Positions 35,064 to 39,535 of a DNA stretch of 64,000 nucleotides are shown here, piece after piece. The first letter of the stretch is position 1; each line of letters begins with the position of its first letter. This DNA comes from Pseudomonas nunensis (GTDB lineage: Bacteria > Pseudomonadota > Gammaproteobacteria > Pseudomonadales > Pseudomonadaceae). The notes under the pieces are model-generated. The model was not told where the DNA came from, ran no database searches, and was given only the letters and a program-made list of their open reading frames with translations. The translations under genes were made by a program, and so were the position numbers. The DNA lies in assembly GCF_024296925.1 (NCBI RefSeq), contig NZ_CP101125.1, positions 3,226,501 through 3,290,500 on the forward strand, written 5' to 3'.

Positions 35064-35377
35064 AACGACCGTCTGCCAACCCCTGTTTGAAGTGGGCGGC
35101 ATTATGGCGGCAATCGATGGCGGGACGGTGACGGCAGGCAGCAAAAACCGGCCATGGGGGCCGGTTTTGGGTGATGTTTCATACTCTTAAGAGTTTTTAA
35201 CAGTTTTGAATCAATAGATCACACCTGATTTGCCGAAGGCTGCAATTTTTGATACTCAGCTGGCTGATTGGGGTGACGGTGGCATGCGGGACACCACGTC
35301 TTACGATTTAACCACTATTCGACAGAACGAAATTTTACAAGAGGAGCTAAGCCAAAAAAGATTCTGACGTGAATCCG
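35064..35377. other. Intergenic gap between rstA and the ubiquitin-like operon
   Basis: This 314-bp gap holds the hairpin at 35144-35168, a degenerate single type C repeat unit around 35229-35252 (GCCGAAGGCTGC), and AT-rich sequence without a gene that I can support. Base composition changes visibly across it, so it probably contains the left border of the low-GC island. Confidence 0.6.
35144..35168 (-). terminator. Hairpin terminator candidate
   Basis: A perfect 10-bp stem, AAAACCGGCC with GGCCGGTTTT and a 5-nt loop. Read on the minus strand the stem ends in a run of five T, fitting termination of transcripts arriving from the ubiquitin-like operon before rstA. It could also work for the plus strand. 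Confidence 0.55.
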
Positions 35378-35947
35378 TCATGACAAAGGCAAAACGCCAG
35401 ATACAACCAAAACATTTTCTTGCGCTATTTCAACCGAGTCCTCTCCAAAGAACCAACGCTCTTCATTTCTAATTGGATCAATAACGAGGCCCACACTATA
35501 TTTAGTGTTAAAAAAGTCACGTTGGGTTTTTCTGTCGGTACCACTAAAAAACGCTCCCAAGTCAGGATGACTGTGATACCAACCAACAACAAAACTATTT
35601 GGCTCTCTATTGGCATTCGCGCGCTGCCAGACTTCGGCACCCATGCTTAGAGAGACAGACGTAGAGTTGAACACCTTGCTATCCATGAAACTGGAAACTT
35701 TAACTATGGTGACTCCTCGCTCAAGATCGAGTGAGCTCACAACACTTCCAATGAGTAGTCCGCCCAACTCAACCCGCTCAGAGCTTAAGTGCAAAAGTAT
35801 ATCTTCCCTGACGCGCGATTCCATTATAACGACGGGGCAGTCTTTCGACGAACTGATCAACCTAACCAAATCGAAAGAACTCCATCCTCGTGAAAACTCA
35901 GCCAGGCCCACCGAGAATATATCTGCCTTTACATTATTCCATTTCAT
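35378..35947 (-). CDS. JAMM/MPN metalloprotease, ubiquitin-like deconjugase
   Basis: A 189-aa Mov34/MPN/PAD-1 (JAB) isopeptidase. The catalytic set is complete: Glu60 (VELGGLLIG), then His125-x-His127-x7-Ser135-x2-Asp138 (WYHSHPDLGAFFSGTD). This fits the zinc JAMM consensus. By family it would cleave the ubiquitin-like protein from targets, or process its precursor. The ATG at 35947 is 2 bp beyond the E2 stop. It is the last gene of the E1/Ubl/E2 operon. The sequence is much less GC-rich than the flanking chromosome. Confidence 0.92.
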   Translation of the reverse strand: MKWNNVKADIFSVGLAEFSRGWSSFDLVRLISSSKDCPVVIMESRVREDILLHLSSERVELGGLLIGSVVSSLDLERGVTIVKVSSFMDSKVFNSTSVSLSMGAEVWQRANANREPNSFVVGWYHSHPDLGAFFSGTDRKTQRDFFNTKYSVGLVIDPIRNEERWFFGEDSVEIAQENVLVVSGVLPLS

Positions 35948-35949
35948 AT

Positions 35950-36588
35950 TTACGTTTCTATATAAAACGTGACGTTACATTTTGGACAGGAGACATTTCC
36001 TTTTTTACCAAATGGCACGCGAAGAGATGCTTTACATGAAGGACAGATTATCACCGCTTTTTCAGTAGTCTCGCTGCTCACGTTGTTCCAGCCAACCTTC
36101 CCTGCAGGCTGCTCTTTGATGATCAACTTTCCGGTAGGAAAAGCATTTGGACTAGTCCTTACGGCAGTCCTGTACCAAAGCAGCGCATCTCTATTCGCGG
36201 GCGACGCTTCGTTCAAGATAGTCTCGTCGAACGTTATAATTTGAATAATCCGTTTAACTAACAAATCGAGACCTTGTGTGGGAAGCCATTTACTCCCCAA
36301 ACAGACCCTGCCGGAACTATATACATTAGGGTGAAATATTGGGGTTGTAATCGTCGCTACCGGTTCCTGAAAAGGATAACGGCTTAAAAGCTCTATTTTT
36401 ACTTCTGTTCTTTTCTGTACAAGCTGCGGATATTTTGTGGATGGAGCAGTAGGAAAATTTAGTTCAAGAATAATCGTGTTAATAGGATTGCCTGATTTGC
36501 TCCTAATCGTCACACGTCCCTCTGCGGCTTTAGAAAGTTCTTCAATTTTACGCAGATCCTGGAACACGCGCTCAGCCATAGCATTCAT
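35950..36588 (-). CDS. E2-like ubiquitin-conjugating enzyme with C-terminal zinc ribbon
   Basis: A 212-aa E2 fold protein. The core is close to eukaryotic E2 enzymes: SRYPFQEPVATITTPIFHPN at about 69-88 with the HPN motif at 86-88, the catalytic Cys96 in GRVCLGSKW, then LDLLVKRIIQII, and the C-terminal helix NRDALLWYR. After about residue 150 comes a short linker and a zinc ribbon (Cys182, Cys185, Cys201, Cys204: CPSC...CPKC), which may bind the target or another subunit. It starts 6 bp after the Ubl stop. It is expected to take Ubl from the E1 and pass it to lysines or other nucleophiles; no E3 gene is seen. Confidence 0.92.
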   Translation of the reverse strand: MNAMAERVFQDLRKIEELSKAAEGRVTIRSKSGNPINTIILELNFPTAPSTKYPQLVQKRTEVKIELLSRYPFQEPVATITTPIFHPNVYSSGRVCLGSKWLPTQGLDLLVKRIIQIITFDETILNEASPANRDALLWYRTAVRTSPNAFPTGKLIIKEQPAGKVGWNNVSSETTEKAVIICPSCKASLRVPFGKKGNVSCPKCNVTFYIET

Positions 36589-36594
36589 AACTTA

Positions 36595-36846
36595 CTACCC
36601 CGCGACAAGTACCGGTTGAACCTCAAGAATATCCCCGTTTTTTACACCTGCATCTTGAAGCAACGCATTTGGCGTAAGCGTTTTACCAGTGGTTGTATTA
36701 ACCAAACTGTAGTCTGTATCAATCGGCAGCGACCAGTTATCCACCGACGCTTGTATGATGTCCGCCCCCGTATTACTGCTTTTCAACGCCACTTCAGCCT
36801 TCCTTGTCTGATCGGCCGTTCTAATAATCACGTTGATATCCGACAC
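36595..36846 (-). CDS. Ubiquitin-like protein ending in Gly
   Basis: An 83-aa protein predicted to be a beta-grasp ubiquitin-like modifier: N-terminal strands INVIIRTADQTRKAEVAL, a helix around 28-36, TGKTLTPNALLQDAGVKNGD, and a last strand ILEVQPVLVAG ending exactly at Gly. The LxxxGVKxGDIL pattern resembles ubiquitin and YukD-like proteins. A C-terminal Gly with no extension means it can be adenylated without prior processing. The GTG start at 36846 has GGAG 8 nt upstream, inside the end of the E1 gene; a longer GTG frame from 36891 exists but overlaps E1 further. It lies between E1 and E2 genes. Confidence 0.85.
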   Translation of the reverse strand: MSDINVIIRTADQTRKAEVALKSSNTGADIIQASVDNWSLPIDTDYSLVNTTTGKTLTPNALLQDAGVKNGDILEVQPVLVAG

Positions 36847-36851
36847 TTCAA

Positions 36852-37970
36852 TTACTCCATCTCGATAATAGTTGTCTGTTCGTTTACACACATACGGATG
36901 AATTTACAAGGAAACTGCATTCCGTAAAAATCATGATTTAATTCGTGCAGCGAAAATGAATCCTTGATCACGACCTGCACCGAATCAATTCCACAGCGCA
37001 CACATGTGTTAATTGATGCATCATAACTTGAAGCCCGCTGAAAAATAATATCGAAGTCGTCGATTGACGGACTGCACACGACACACCGAGTTGAAACCAG
37101 CACTGGATCACTGGTAACTACGTAATCATCTGAATCCCCCGCAGGAAAACCCAGACTGCTATGGATTTGCGAACCTCCCTTCAACACTGAAACTCGCCCA
37201 ACCAATAATGCGCAAGCAGGACAACTGCAACTCGATTCAATGCTGCTGAGTGTTGAGCGCCCACTGAATGAATCAATCAATATTCGTTTCGATTCATCAA
37301 GAGCAACGCCTCTGGTCATATCAAGTGCATTTGAGACTGCTAACGCGCCAGTCAGGCTGGATGTTATTATTGTCGTGGGAATCTTCTTCTCGACAAAAGA
37401 GATTTTTTTCAACCACCCGCAAGAGTATCGTGCCTGCATTCGCTCATAAGCACTATTAGGAAGATTACATTCATAGCACGCCACACGCGTTGTTGAGGCA
37501 AAAGGAAAAACTTCGACTTGGCAGAATCGGCTATCTATCCCCGTATTTATAAGATTTGTTTTAGCGATCAAGCAGAGTTGATTGAGCCTAATCCTGGCCT
37601 CAAAATTATCAACGCAACAAATAATGCAACTATATGATGCCGCTCGATCCAATGACATTTCATCCCAAAAATCCCCGAGAAAAAACCCCACATTGATATT
37701 CGGATCAAGCTCTTCTATCCGCGCGGCGGCGACCTCTGCCTTAAAGCTACCAACATCGCCTTCCCTAAAAAGAACGCTTCTCGTCAGATTATGAAGTTCG
37801 ATAGTATCAAAGTCATACAGATCAACATTACCGACCCCGAGCAGAGCCAAGTTTTTTGCAACTTCATTTCCTACGGCGCCACAGCCAACAATCGCAAACG
37901 TTGCAGCCTTCACATCTTCCTGTGAAAACCAATCGATTAAAGAATGACGCTGATAGCGGTCACTGCTCAT
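36852..37970 (-). CDS. E1-like ThiF/MoeB-family adenylating enzyme
   Basis: A 372-aa E1-like activator. The start has the ThiF-family RYQRHS; the ATP loop is VGCGAVGNEVAKNLALLGVG (GxGxxG at 29-34). LYDFDTIELHNLTRSVLF carries the acidic and Arg residues of the adenylation site. Zinc ligands are Cys165/Cys168 (CYEC) and Cys250/Cys253 (CSCPAC). Cys184 (RYSCGW) lies in the crossover loop where E1 enzymes place the thioester Cys, a candidate only. The C-terminal 100 residues hold two more Cys pairs (CVVC, CVRC) and may recruit E2 or Ubl. It has one adenylation domain, not two. Its start overlaps the J-domain gene by 11 bp. Confidence 0.9.
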   Translation of the reverse strand: MSSDRYQRHSLIDWFSQEDVKAATFAIVGCGAVGNEVAKNLALLGVGNVDLYDFDTIELHNLTRSVLFREGDVGSFKAEVAAARIEELDPNINVGFFLGDFWDEMSLDRAASYSCIICCVDNFEARIRLNQLCLIAKTNLINTGIDSRFCQVEVFPFASTTRVACYECNLPNSAYERMQARYSCGWLKKISFVEKKIPTTIITSSLTGALAVSNALDMTRGVALDESKRILIDSFSGRSTLSSIESSCSCPACALLVGRVSVLKGGSQIHSSLGFPAGDSDDYVVTSDPVLVSTRCVVCSPSIDDFDIIFQRASSYDASINTCVRCGIDSVQVVIKDSFSLHELNHDFYGMQFPCKFIRMCVNEQTTIIEME

Positions 37971-38211
37971 GACTCTTCTCCTTTTTTATCTGCTCAATAG
38001 CCTGATTCAATAACTTGATAACTTCCGTAACATAGCTGGACATAAAAGCGTCCGCTCTATCAGGATGATAAAGCTTGATTTTTCTTCGATAAGCCCCCTT
38101 CACCTCATCCAATGTCGCCGTTTCAGAGACACCTAAACGCTCGTACGGATTCTGACATTTAATGCGATCAAGCTGACTCTTATAGCCAGTGTCAATATCA
38201 ACCCACTTCAT
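37960..38211 (-). CDS. Stand-alone J-domain protein
   Basis: An 83-aa protein consisting of little more than a J-domain: NPYERLGVSETATLDEVKGA then YRRKIKLYHPDRADAF, with His49-Pro50-Asp51 as the HPD motif that stimulates DnaK ATPase. No G/F, zinc-finger or substrate domain follows. A short N-terminal tail of 20 residues is unique. Start and stop overlap the neighbouring genes (TAATG upstream, 11 bp downstream), so it is an integral part of the operon. It probably couples Hsp70 to the conjugation system. Confidence 0.9.
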   Translation of the reverse strand: MKWVDIDTGYKSQLDRIKCQNPYERLGVSETATLDEVKGAYRRKIKLYHPDRADAFMSSYVTEVIKLLNQAIEQIKKEKSHEQ

Positions 38212-39041
38212 TAACCGACACTCAGAATCATTGCTTTTTCAGAAACAACTATTTCGAATCCAAAATCAGGATGCTCAATAATCAGTCCTCGAACCTTGAC
38301 TCTCTTTCCACTCAAACCGAGAATTTGGCTTCCGCCAATTTTTTTGACAGCCCCACGAAAAAACACCAATTTAAAACTCTTCACCCACGACTTATCTTCA
38401 AACATAACGGCGTAGTCGTTACCTCGGCTGCTTTCCCTTACCTTATGTACCAGGCCTTCAAATGTAACAACCGAACCCACATACTGGTGATAATTACCTA
38501 ACGTCACAACATCTGGCGTGTAATCTCTTCCTTTGGACGGCGCTCCAAAAACAACCGATATAATATTTATAGAAGGACAGGAAACGCACTGAGCGTTATT
38601 CACCTCTTTTAGGAGCTGAAAGCTTTCAGTGTGATAGTAAACCTTGCAGGCTTGACATTGATACAGACCTAACTTTTGATTAAGCAGGGCACCTGTAAAA
38701 GCATCATGCAAGCCGCTCAAATCAGTGGCAATAGATTTAGTGCCTGCAGCAGGGGCAGCCGAAGCATCTTTAAAACTTATAGCCGGCTTGTTTACAGAAC
38801 GCGCAGCAGGGCGAAATACTTCATTGCTGGGTGGCTTTGGTTGTGGTTGTGGTTGTGGTTGTGGCGGTGGCGGTGGCGGTGGCGGTGCCGGACGAACCGG
38901 CCTTGGTGCAGGAGTAACGGTGGAAGTTCGCACCGGCGCAACACTGGAGCGCCGTTGATTGTCCTTTTTAACTGACAAACGCCACTTGGACACTAACACC
39001 CAAATTAACCATATACCTCCAACTACTATTAACGAGCCCAT
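38211..39041 (-). CDS. Membrane-anchored protein with proline-rich linker, zinc ribbon and OB-like domain
   Basis: A 276-aa first gene of the operon. Residues 3-19 form one transmembrane anchor (LIVVGGIWLIWVLVSKW). A basic stretch and a Pro/Gln linker follow (about 40-75), encoded by hexanucleotide repeats. A zinc ribbon comes next (CQACKVYYHTESFQ, then CVSCPS; CxxC-x20-CxxC). The last 110 residues are beta-rich and look like an OB fold (VGSVVTFEGLVHKV, YAVMFEDKSW, LSGKRVKVRGLIIEHPDFGF). The anchor puts the soluble part in the cytoplasm. ATG 39041 follows GAAGGA; a TTG 18 bp upstream is possible. No function is known to me; nucleic-acid or partner binding at the membrane is plausible. Confidence 0.8.
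   Translation of the reverse strand: MGSLIVVGGIWLIWVLVSKWRLSVKKDNQRRSSVAPVRTSTVTPAPRPVRPAPPPPPPPPQPQPQPQPKPPSNEVFRPAARSVNKPAISFKDASAAPAAGTKSIATDLSGLHDAFTGALLNQKLGLYQCQACKVYYHTESFQLLKEVNNAQCVSCPSINIISVVFGAPSKGRDYTPDVVTLGNYHQYVGSVVTFEGLVHKVRESSRGNDYAVMFEDKSWVKSFKLVFFRGAVKKIGGSQILGLSGKRVKVRGLIIEHPDFGFEIVVSEKAMILSVG
38835..38887. repeat. Hexanucleotide microsatellite inside the proline-rich linker
   Basis: Plus-strand units of TTGTGG repeated about four times, then GGCGGT repeated about four times. They encode alternating Pro-Gln and poly-Pro. As units are 6 bp, slippage would alter linker length without shifting the frame. Confidence 0.8.
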
Positions 39042-39535
39042 CGCATTCCTTCGCTGCAATCAATTCTAAAATAAAAACAACAATAGCTTTTTAGCAGGAT
39101 TTCCAGACACCAGGCCCATCAAATAGACCCCGCGCAACATCCACCGTTTACTTACCAATTTCCCAATCTAACCCATAGGCAAGTATCTGTCTATCCGCTC
39201 AGATTACGAGGGCGGCAGCTTCACCCGGAAGGCGATACATACAACCTATCTTTTGGCGCTACGCTCCTCGCCCCCCTCTCGCGCCAACAGCAAAACTATT
39301 GATGGAATAAAAATTGACGTCCACATAAAAGCTTGAGGTTGCGCCGTTTTATTGACAGCTGACTCTCGGATTTTATTAAACAGTTTCTTGTGCTACCCAA
39401 CCATGATGGGGCAACTTAAGACAAGAGGAAATGCAGGGCCCAGCTTCAGTGAACGACCCTGCACTACACGTTTTTAATATGTCGAATCATCAATTCGAAG
39501 CTTGCTACTTACTCGACAGGGGTTATGACCAGCAT
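39042..39535. other. AT-rich intergenic region upstream of the ubiquitin-like operon
   Basis: This 494-bp region separates the operon from miaE. It contains the operon's promoter region (AT-rich tract at about 39060-39085) and a pair of inverted arms TGCAGGG/CCCTGCA at about 39432-39463. No gene, tRNA or integrase remnant is visible to me. The composition changes back to GC-rich at the miaE end, so the right border of the island is probably here. Confidence 0.55.

What the first reader, a model, noticed from the sequence alone, without database searches (positions are those of the whole stretch)
35378..39041. Six-gene ubiquitin-type conjugation operon (OB/membrane protein, J protein, E1, Ubl, E2, JAMM)
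A tight minus-strand operon encodes every step of a ubiquitin-like cycle: an E1-like ThiF enzyme, a Gly-ending modifier, an E2 with HPN and catalytic Cys, and a JAMM isopeptidase with a complete metal site. Neighbouring genes overlap or are only 2-6 bp apart. The four-gene bacterial systems I know (Bil-type Ubl/E2/E1/DUB) do not include the two extra genes here, and the E1 here has one adenylation domain of 372 aa where the described Bil E1 has two. This may be a distinct class of bacterial ubiquitin-like pathway, perhaps for phage defence or stress.
Basis: partly seen in the sequence, partly recalled or inferred. Interest (0 to 1): 0.95.

Follow-up and report, generated by a model that had tools for sequence, protein, structure and literature searches.

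The report
Mobile bacterial ubiquitin-like conjugation cassette
A bacterial genome, likely a Pseudomonas, carries a compact six-gene block, found in the same gene order in three other bacterial genomes and one virus-derived sequence, that is predicted to tag proteins with a small ubiquitin-like protein and remove the tag again, likely at the cell membrane and possibly as a defence against phages.

Summary
Six overlapping or nearly touching minus-strand genes (35378-39041) encode a membrane-anchored zinc/OB-like protein, a J protein (HPD), a single-adenylation-domain E1 (372 aa), an 83-aa Gly-ending Ubl, an HPN...Cys E2 with a zinc ribbon, and a JAMM protease with its metal-site motif. All four close relatives fetched carry the same six genes in the same order: an Endozoicomonadaceae MAG, two unnamed same-class genomes, and a phage contig where the block sits between umuDC and a restriction-modification pair. 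In the window it is a low-GC insert (43-47% against about 60%) between miaE and a response regulator; two same-genus genomes have that junction without it. The Ubl is the most conserved of the six; 7 of 34 aligned rows carry short tails after the Gly. The E1 has the UBA5/MoeB outline, not that of BilD, and the E2 matches eukaryotic E2s best, so the block fails the Bil, Cap2 and Iyer 6a-6e criteria tested. Best reading: a horizontally moved Ubl conjugation/deconjugation module with a membrane-tethered, possibly E3-like scaffold and a DnaK link; defence is inferred from context. Conjugation, E3 role and defence are untested; structure prediction was off. The closest prior papers (Burroughs 2011; Gong 2025; Ye 2026) could not be read, so priority is open.

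The parts
38211..39041 (-). Gene 1: membrane-anchored zinc/OB-like protein (276 aa); candidate scaffold or E3-like factor
   Evidence: ORF; 54-row alignment A2; N-terminal hydrophobic segment in 53 of 54 rows
38982..39032 (-). Predicted N-terminal membrane segment, basic residues after it
   Evidence: Hydropathy over 54 rows; orientation inferred from the positive-inside rule (recalled)
38829..38912 (-). Pro/Gln-rich linker of gene 1, not conserved
   Evidence: Sequence, alignment
38571..38720 (-). Zinc module: D113, T116, G117, C129xxC132, Y136, H137, S140, C152xxC155 invariant in 54 rows
   Evidence: A2 invariant columns; A5; no significant family match
38238..38468 (-). OB-fold-like C-terminal domain
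   Evidence: 13 of 54 members hit OB_YrrC (best 6.5e-4), 8 tRNA_anti-codon (best 0.0065) at E <= 10
37960..38211 (-). J protein (83 aa), HPD motif at 38059-38067
   Evidence: Pfam DnaJ 1.6e-11; HPD in 5 of 5
36852..37970 (-). E1-like enzyme (372 aa): one ThiF adenylation domain, C165/C168 + C250/C253 likely zinc site, invariant C184 in the crossover region, C296/C299 + C323/C326 C-terminal module
36595..36846 (-). Ubiquitin-like modifier, 83 aa, GTG start, ends ...VLVAG
   Evidence: A3 alignment; Pfam by member
35950..36588 (-). E2-like enzyme (212 aa): HPN...C96; C-terminal CxxC...CxxC zinc ribbon (35974-36051)
   Evidence: Pfam UQ_con 1.6e-11; PDB best UBE2T 7.6e-9; A6
35378..35947 (-). JAMM/JAB peptidase (189 aa), E60...H125-S-H127...S135..D138
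   Evidence: Pfam Prok-JAB 6.1e-10; A7
35203..39535 (.). Approximate extent of the inserted low-GC cassette between miaE and a response-regulator gene; no ORF recognised as a mobility gene inside
   Evidence: GC profile; junctions without it in L032 and L037; flank genes by Pfam

Best explanation
The six genes form a cassette, likely horizontally transferred, that is predicted to run a complete ubiquitin-like conjugation and deconjugation cycle, likely at the inner membrane, and would probably serve as an anti-phage or stress response. Predicted steps: the JAMM enzyme trims any tail after the Gly of the 83-aa Ubl (the window's own Ubl already ends in Gly) and removes it from targets; the homodimer-type E1 adenylates the Gly and likely carries it on C184; the E2 takes it on C96 and passes it to target amines; gene 1, held in the membrane with its zinc and OB-like modules probably in the cytoplasm, would position E2 or substrate, perhaps as a one-zinc RING/U-box-like E3; the J protein would bring DnaK to the substrate or product. 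Shown here by sequence: gene content, order, active-site motifs, an insert absent from two relatives, and conservation. Inferred: every reaction, the folds of Ubl and gene 1, the membrane topology, the E3-like role, the DnaK link and defence.
For: Family assignments; motifs intact in the copies compared; same six genes, same order, tight spacing in 4 of 4 close relatives; 31 of 85 distinct E1 contig lengths of 4 kb or more recur among those of gene-1 homologues and 14 in all three lists (indirect). The Ubl is the most conserved member (mean 60% over 10 locus pairs, the others 43-49%); 7 of 34 Ubl rows have 1-8 residues after the Gly, which fits pro-Ubl processing. The E1 outline parallels UBA5 (about 400 aa, homodimer, crossover-loop Cys, C-terminal extension, Ubl ending Val-Gly; passages of PMC12355090). 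Insert. Defence context: on a phage contig beside restriction-modification genes; a PLD/NgoFVII-like gene downstream of JAMM in L009.
Against: No biochemical test. The zinc module has no significant match to RING, U-box or any other Pfam or PDB family; the best PDB match is ribosomal protein bL31 at E 0.35, and the Prok-RING_1 search of the window's own genome did not hit gene 1. The Ubl profile has no significant PDB match (best SAMP2, E 0.08). C184 lies 8 residues before the column of the MoeB-like protein's Cys (F192 here), so the catalytic Cys is unproven. One copy has NPN in place of HPN. Defence neighbours were seen at only 2 of the 4 loci with readable flanks (L007, L009; not at L010 or the window). 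No similar DNA in E. coli, and no Ubl match in the phage and plasmid collections.
Confidence: 0.62

Rival explanations
1. Same conjugation machinery, but for protein quality control or envelope stress: the Ubl would mark misfolded or membrane proteins, which the J protein hands to DnaK. Phage defence is not the role.
For: The J gene is present in 5 of 5 loci and a hydrophobic N-terminus in 53 of 54 gene-1 rows; in L010 and in the window the annotated neighbours are housekeeping-type genes.
Against: Sporadic presence (only the own genome of 398 same-genus genomes), a cassette-like insert and a place on a phage contig next to restriction-modification genes fit defence better than housekeeping.
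Confidence: 0.25
2. A Ubl sulfur-carrier or cofactor pathway (ThiS/MoaD-like), in which E1 activates the Ubl for sulfur transfer and not for protein tagging.
For: E1 is of ThiF/MoeB build with the MoeB-type CxxC pairs; TIGR02356 ThiF 1.8e-30, though far below its cut-off.
Against: An E2 with active-site Cys and a JAMM protease are present in 5 of 5 loci; none of the six genes is a rhodanese or a biosynthetic gene by Pfam; tails after the Gly in 7 of 34 Ubls suggest proteolysis.
Confidence: 0.05
3. Phage or mobile-element weapon: the cassette helps the carrying phage or element (exclusion of rival phages, or control of host proteins) rather than the cell itself.
For: Found on a phage contig between umuDC and R-M genes; cassette-only insert in the window.
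Against: No phage gene was recognised among the neighbours annotated in L009, L010 and the window; the viral-contig scans found only 1 such contig.
Confidence: 0.1

Closest known systems
Bil (BilABCD) anti-phage systems
   Same: Four core functions (Ubl, E2, E1, JAB DUB) in one operon; the BilD model of PADLOC hits the E1 at 5.7e-8.
   Different: BilA has two Ubl domains, BilB a CEHH active site, BilD an inactive plus an active adenylation domain and a Cys domain (passages of PMC11354881); here one 83-aa Ubl, HPN E2, one adenylation domain, plus J and membrane zinc/OB-like genes.
UFM1 pathway (UBA5/UFC1) as functional analogue
   Same: About 400-aa single-domain E1 with C-terminal extension and crossover-loop Cys, Ubl ending in one Gly (passages of PMC12355090); the E1 profile aligns UBA5 over 18-218.
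   Different: The E2 is closest in PDB to UBE2T; JAMM in place of UFSP proteases (recalled); bacterial operon.
Archaeal Caldiarchaeum Ub/E1/E2/srfp operon + Rpn11
   Same: Complete Ub-like gene set with JAMM processing of a pro-Ub (passages of PMC5654768).
   Different: No significant RING match here; J and TM/OB-like proteins added; bacterial.
Iyer 2006 bacterial operons 6a-6e
   Same: JAB + E1 + E2/Ubl neighbourhoods (section 14 of PMC1779556). The JAMM here also has an invariant N-terminal Trp (W3), a residue that the paper names for the 6d JAB-N domain.
   Different: 6a-6c fuse E2 to E1, 6d E2 lacks the classical His, 6e has poly-Ubl and inactive E2; none lists J or TM/OB genes in the table rows seen.
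Ubl conjugation with RING in vWA-MoxR/FtsH conflict systems (PMC7159879)
   Same: JAB, E1, RING-type E3 and Ubl/E2 in one bacterial neighbourhood (passages).
   Different: There the Ubl is fused to E2 and sits with a caspase-like effector; not so here.
Prokaryotic RING/YukD-Ubl systems of Burroughs 2011; Bub operons (Gong 2025, Ye 2026)
   Same: From recall, Burroughs 2011 proposed RING E3s, YukD-like modifiers and E1 C-terminal Ub-fold domains in bacteria; here more Ubl rows match YukD than any other Pfam family. Bub operons are said to hold a Ubl, E1, E2 and protease (passage of PMC12687455).
   Different: Not readable, so sameness or difference is not established.

Membership tests
Bil (BilABCD) | Modifier with two Ubl domains | tested here: not met
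   83-aa Ubl in window; 78-94 aa in the aligned rows; criterion from PMC11354881 passages
Bil (BilABCD) | E2 with CEHH active site | tested here: not met
   HPN (NPN in one copy) with C96 eight residues after N88
Bil (BilABCD) | E1 with inactive + active adenylation domains and Cys domain | tested here: not met
   One ThiF domain at 15-200 of 372 aa; the PADLOC BilD profile aligns only its positions 210-348; sequence only
CBASS Cap2 / Iyer 6a-6c | E2 and E1 fused in one protein | tested here: not met
   Separate genes in 5 of 5 loci
Iyer 6d | E2 lacking the classical His, plus alpha-helical protein | tested here: not met
   HPN present in window E2; no further gene among the six beyond those described
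Iyer 6e | poly-Ubl and inactive E2 | tested here: not met
   Single-domain Ubl in 5 of 5 loci (83-85 aa), E2 Cys invariant
Bub operons | Gene content and E1/E2 chemistry defined in Gong 2025 / Ye 2026 | not tested
   Papers not held; only passages of PMC13373217 and PMC12687455 seen
Ubiquitin-like conjugation system (general) | beta-grasp modifier with C-terminal Gly | tested here: inconclusive
   Gly83 in 34 of 34 rows and Ubl-family Pfam hits by member: met by sequence; fold not modelled and no significant PDB match
Ubiquitin-like conjugation system (general) | E1 adenylation residues, E2 Cys and DUB metal-site motif intact | tested here: met
   (sequence only)
Ubiquitin-like conjugation system (general) | Covalent Ubl-protein conjugates | not testable with these tools
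   needs biochemistry
RING/U-box E3 | Recognisable RING/U-box domain in gene 1 | tested here: inconclusive
   Invariant C2+C2 with D, T-G, H, S, but best PDB E 0.35 (bL31) and no RING or U-box Pfam among the families shown
Anti-phage defence system | Located with defence genes / mobile | tested here: inconclusive
   Phage contig + R-M in L007, PLD-like gene in L009; housekeeping-type neighbours in L010 and window

The most novel reading that the evidence does not exclude
A separate class of bacterial ubiquitin-like system with a full E1-E2-E3-modifier-protease cascade: gene 1 is a membrane-anchored, one-zinc RING/U-box-like E3 whose lost second zinc site is replaced by invariant D, T-G, H and S residues, and a dedicated J protein couples tagging to DnaK, so that bacteria mark and remodel phage or damaged proteins at the inner membrane. 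A 70-aa stand-alone copy of the zinc module on Vibrio plasmids would be a decoy that blocks it.
Probability: 0.3. Interest if true: 0.88.

Novelty: new variant of a known kind. Interest (0 to 1): 0.7.

Why it matters
If it conjugates, this is a compact, mobile, eukaryote-like ubiquitin pathway with an HPN-type E2, a UBA5-like E1 and a strongly conserved modifier. It would let one ask how E2-dependent tagging, pro-Ubl processing, E3-like scaffolding and Hsp70 coupling work together in a bacterium, and whether eukaryotic-type E1/E2 architecture circulated on bacterial mobile elements. Six small, mostly soluble proteins make reconstitution direct.

Tried and rejected
Structure prediction was asked once, for gene 1, and is switched off, so fold claims rest on sequence only. 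A RING hypothesis for gene 1 was tested by Pfam scans, by PDB profiles and by a Prok-RING_1 (PF14446) search of 60 genomes (47 of 60 match at E <= 1 but 0 of 60 pass the curated cut-off, and 12 of 14 controls match likewise with 0 passing; 3 weak matches in the window's own genome, none at gene 1): no significant support. A Ub-fold domain at the E1 C-terminus (suggested by recall of Burroughs 2011) was tested by hhalign against the Ubl profile: no similarity (E 0.31 and 0.21). That the E1 catalytic Cys sits at the MoeB column was rejected: that column is F192; C184 is the invariant Cys of that region. Target-site duplications at the insert ends: none recognised. tRNA or Rfam anchors: none in the window. 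Promoter-like sites 11 (shuffles 7.4, sd 2.3) and terminator-like sites 5 (4.3, sd 2.1) are near chance; one terminator-like site follows JAMM at 35365-35380. In one search the L003 paralogue was translated in a wrong frame, so its row is meaningless and was not used. The hhalign part failed or printed a stale result and was redone.

Selections: A1 18 and A4 54 of the 120 E1 homologues listed (2179 found); A2 the window and 53 of 120 gene-1 homologues listed (234 found); A3 the window and 33 of 120 Ubl homologues listed (471 found); A5 16 zinc modules chosen by me from 30 printed of 40 non-redundant. In one search, 15 other loci (L032-L046) were compared; L047-L050 (short weak hits) were left out. 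Of L009 and L010 only 8 and 5 ORFs were annotated.


Full report
What is there. Six minus-strand ORFs lie at 35378-39041 as reported: gene 1 (276 aa), J protein (83), E1 (372), Ubl (83), E2 (212), JAMM (189). Gaps are -1, -11, +5, +6 and +2 bp. Pfam gives DnaJ 1.6e-11, ThiF 2.5e-42, UQ_con 1.6e-11 and Prok-JAB 6.1e-10; the Ubl and gene 1 are weak alone. PADLOC hits are generic (best E1-E2 5.5e-17 for the E1, JAB 3.1e-6; none for gene 1 or the Ubl); no NCBIfam row shown reaches its cut-off.

Is it a real unit? The E1 search brought one genome-collection locus (L004, Endozoicomonadaceae MAG), two genomes of the class sample (L005, L006) and one viral contig (L007). In 4 of 4, phmmer with the six window proteins finds all six genes in the same order and strand, with similar overlaps. 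A more distant plasmid relative from Crinalium (43% over 59% of the E1) has E1, two small ORFs weakly like the Ubl (hhalign E 7.7e-5 and 5.6e-5, probability 62 and 66%), E2 and a Mov34 protein, but no J or gene-1 gene annotated beside it. Indirect support from the protein database: of 85 distinct E1 contig lengths of 4 kb or more, 31 also appear among the 71 of gene 1, and 14 in all three lists (equal length only suggests the same contig, and each list shows the best 120 proteins).

Rarity and spread. Genomes with an E1 match, own genome included: 1 of 398 of the genus (E <= 1e-40); at E <= 1e-60, 1 of 293 of the order, 3 of 369 of the class, 1 of 398 of the phylum, and 1 of 24 and 1 of 7 in the families of the two class hits (one search covered the same 24 again). 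Names that sources give to homologues include Vibrio, Aeromonas, Photobacterium, Colwellia, Paraburkholderia, Cupriavidus and Syntrophotalea. Identity does not follow taxonomy (E1 61% to Syntrophotalea, 59% to Endozoicomonadaceae, 51% to Photobacterium), as expected for horizontal transfer.

Insert. GC is 43-47% inside and about 60% outside. The flanking genes are miaE (Pfam MiaE 4.8e-81) and a response regulator followed by a histidine kinase. In 2 of 15 other loci compared (L032, L037, both same genus), miaE and the response-regulator gene lie side by side about 180 bp apart. In L035 a partial response-regulator match lies 1.3 kb from miaE; in the other 12 none was found within the 1.5 kb held, so the junction is variable. 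Homology stops near 35203-35219 and near 39535. No recognised mobility gene or target duplication lies in the insert.

Ubl. The 34-row alignment has 21 invariant columns, with the end QPxLVAG in all rows; 7 of 34 rows carry 1-8 residues after the Gly. It is the most conserved of the six proteins (mean 60% over 10 locus pairs; others 43-49%). Member-wise Pfam scans: YukD 26, Rad60-SLD 19, ubiquitin 10 of 34. The PDB profile search is weak: best SAMP2, E 0.08. The beta-grasp fold is therefore likely, not shown.

E1. One adenylation domain; nearest PDB sequences are eukaryotic E1s, aligned at their second adenylation domain (E 1e-23; profile 1.6e-33), with UBA5 and MccB aligned over 18-218 and 16-256. 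In 54 sequences C119, C165, C168, C184, C250, C296, C299, C323, C326, K77 and D121 are invariant and C253 nearly so. Against the genome's own MoeB-like protein (L002), C165/C168 and C250/C253 match its CxxC pairs, C119 also matches a Cys, and its loop Cys falls on F192, leaving C184 as the invariant candidate thioester Cys in the crossover region (inference). Passages of PMC12355090 describe UBA5 as a minimal homodimeric E1 with a crossover-loop Cys and C-terminal extension, acting on a Ubl ending in Val-Gly; the present E1/Ubl pair has the same outline.

E2 and JAMM. The E2 matches UBE2T best (7.6e-9) and has P87-N88 and C96 in 6 of 6 sequences, including Crinalium; HPN in 5 of 6, NPN in L010; a C-terminal CxxC...CxxC ribbon in 5 of 6, not in Crinalium. 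JAMM E60, HSH, S135, D138 are invariant in 5 of 5.

J protein and gene 1. HPD is invariant in 5 of 5. Gene 1 has a hydrophobic N-terminus in 53 of 54 rows, a variable linker, a zinc module with invariant D113, T116, G117, C129, C132, Y136, H137, S140, C152, C155 and an OB-like tail (OB_YrrC in 13 of 54, best 6.5e-4). The spacing recalls a RING or U-box treble clef in which one zinc site is replaced (recall); a review passage says bacterial RINGs lack two pairs of zinc residues but keep two (PMC11354881). Sequence tests do not establish it: best PDB match bL31 at E 0.35, PHD fingers from 0.99; Pfam only scattered zinc fingers. It stays a hypothesis.

Context. On the L007 contig the cassette lies after terminase, portal and umuDC genes and before a restriction endonuclease/methyltransferase pair, holin and endolysin. 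In L009 a PLD/NgoFVII-like gene follows JAMM by 54 bp, with a resolvase gene about 1.8 kb further. L010 neighbours annotated are acyl-CoA dehydrogenases, an antiporter and flagellar-type genes. L004 is too short to say. So defence is plausible, not shown.

Comparison with known systems. Bil, Cap2/CBASS and Iyer 6a-6e fail on tested features (membership table). Bub operons and the prokaryotic RING systems of Burroughs 2011 could not be read; what I say of the latter is recall. The literature searches listed no title or abstract opening that names this six-gene order, but most subscription papers are not held. What I saw: PMC1779556 outline, passages and section 14; PMC12355090 passages and section 27; passages only of PMC13373217, PMC7159879, PMC11354881, PMC12687455 and PMC5654768. 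I therefore file it as a new variant of a known kind.

Noticed in passing
L054:6962-7174 (Vibrio plasmid NZ_CP072682.1; same hit on NZ_CP071847.1 and NZ_CP024629.1): A 70-aa stand-alone protein is little more than the zinc module of gene 1 (61% over residues 108-163), beside a DNA cytosine methyltransferase; no E1, E2 or Ubl is annotated in the 14 kb around it, though a ThiF gene lies about 62 kb away on the plasmid. Candidate decoy or regulator. No match in phages or viral contigs.
   Followed up: partly
L008:6001-9478 (Crinalium plasmid pCRI9333.03): Related but reduced system with E1, two tandem Ubl-like ORFs, E2 and Mov34/JAB protein, no J or gene-1 gene.
   Followed up: partly
L007:10893-13509: Restriction endonuclease/methyltransferase pair directly after the cassette on a phage contig, umuDC directly before it.
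   Followed up: partly
35203-39535: The miaE/response-regulator junction varies within the genus; possible insertion hotspot.
   Followed up: no
window 37960-38211 and 35378-35947: J protein and JAMM both begin M(I)[K/Q]W in 5 of 5 copies; perhaps a shared docking motif.
   Followed up: no
38829-38912: Pro/Gln-rich low-complexity tract in the gene 1 linker of the window copy, not conserved in the rows shown.
   Followed up: no
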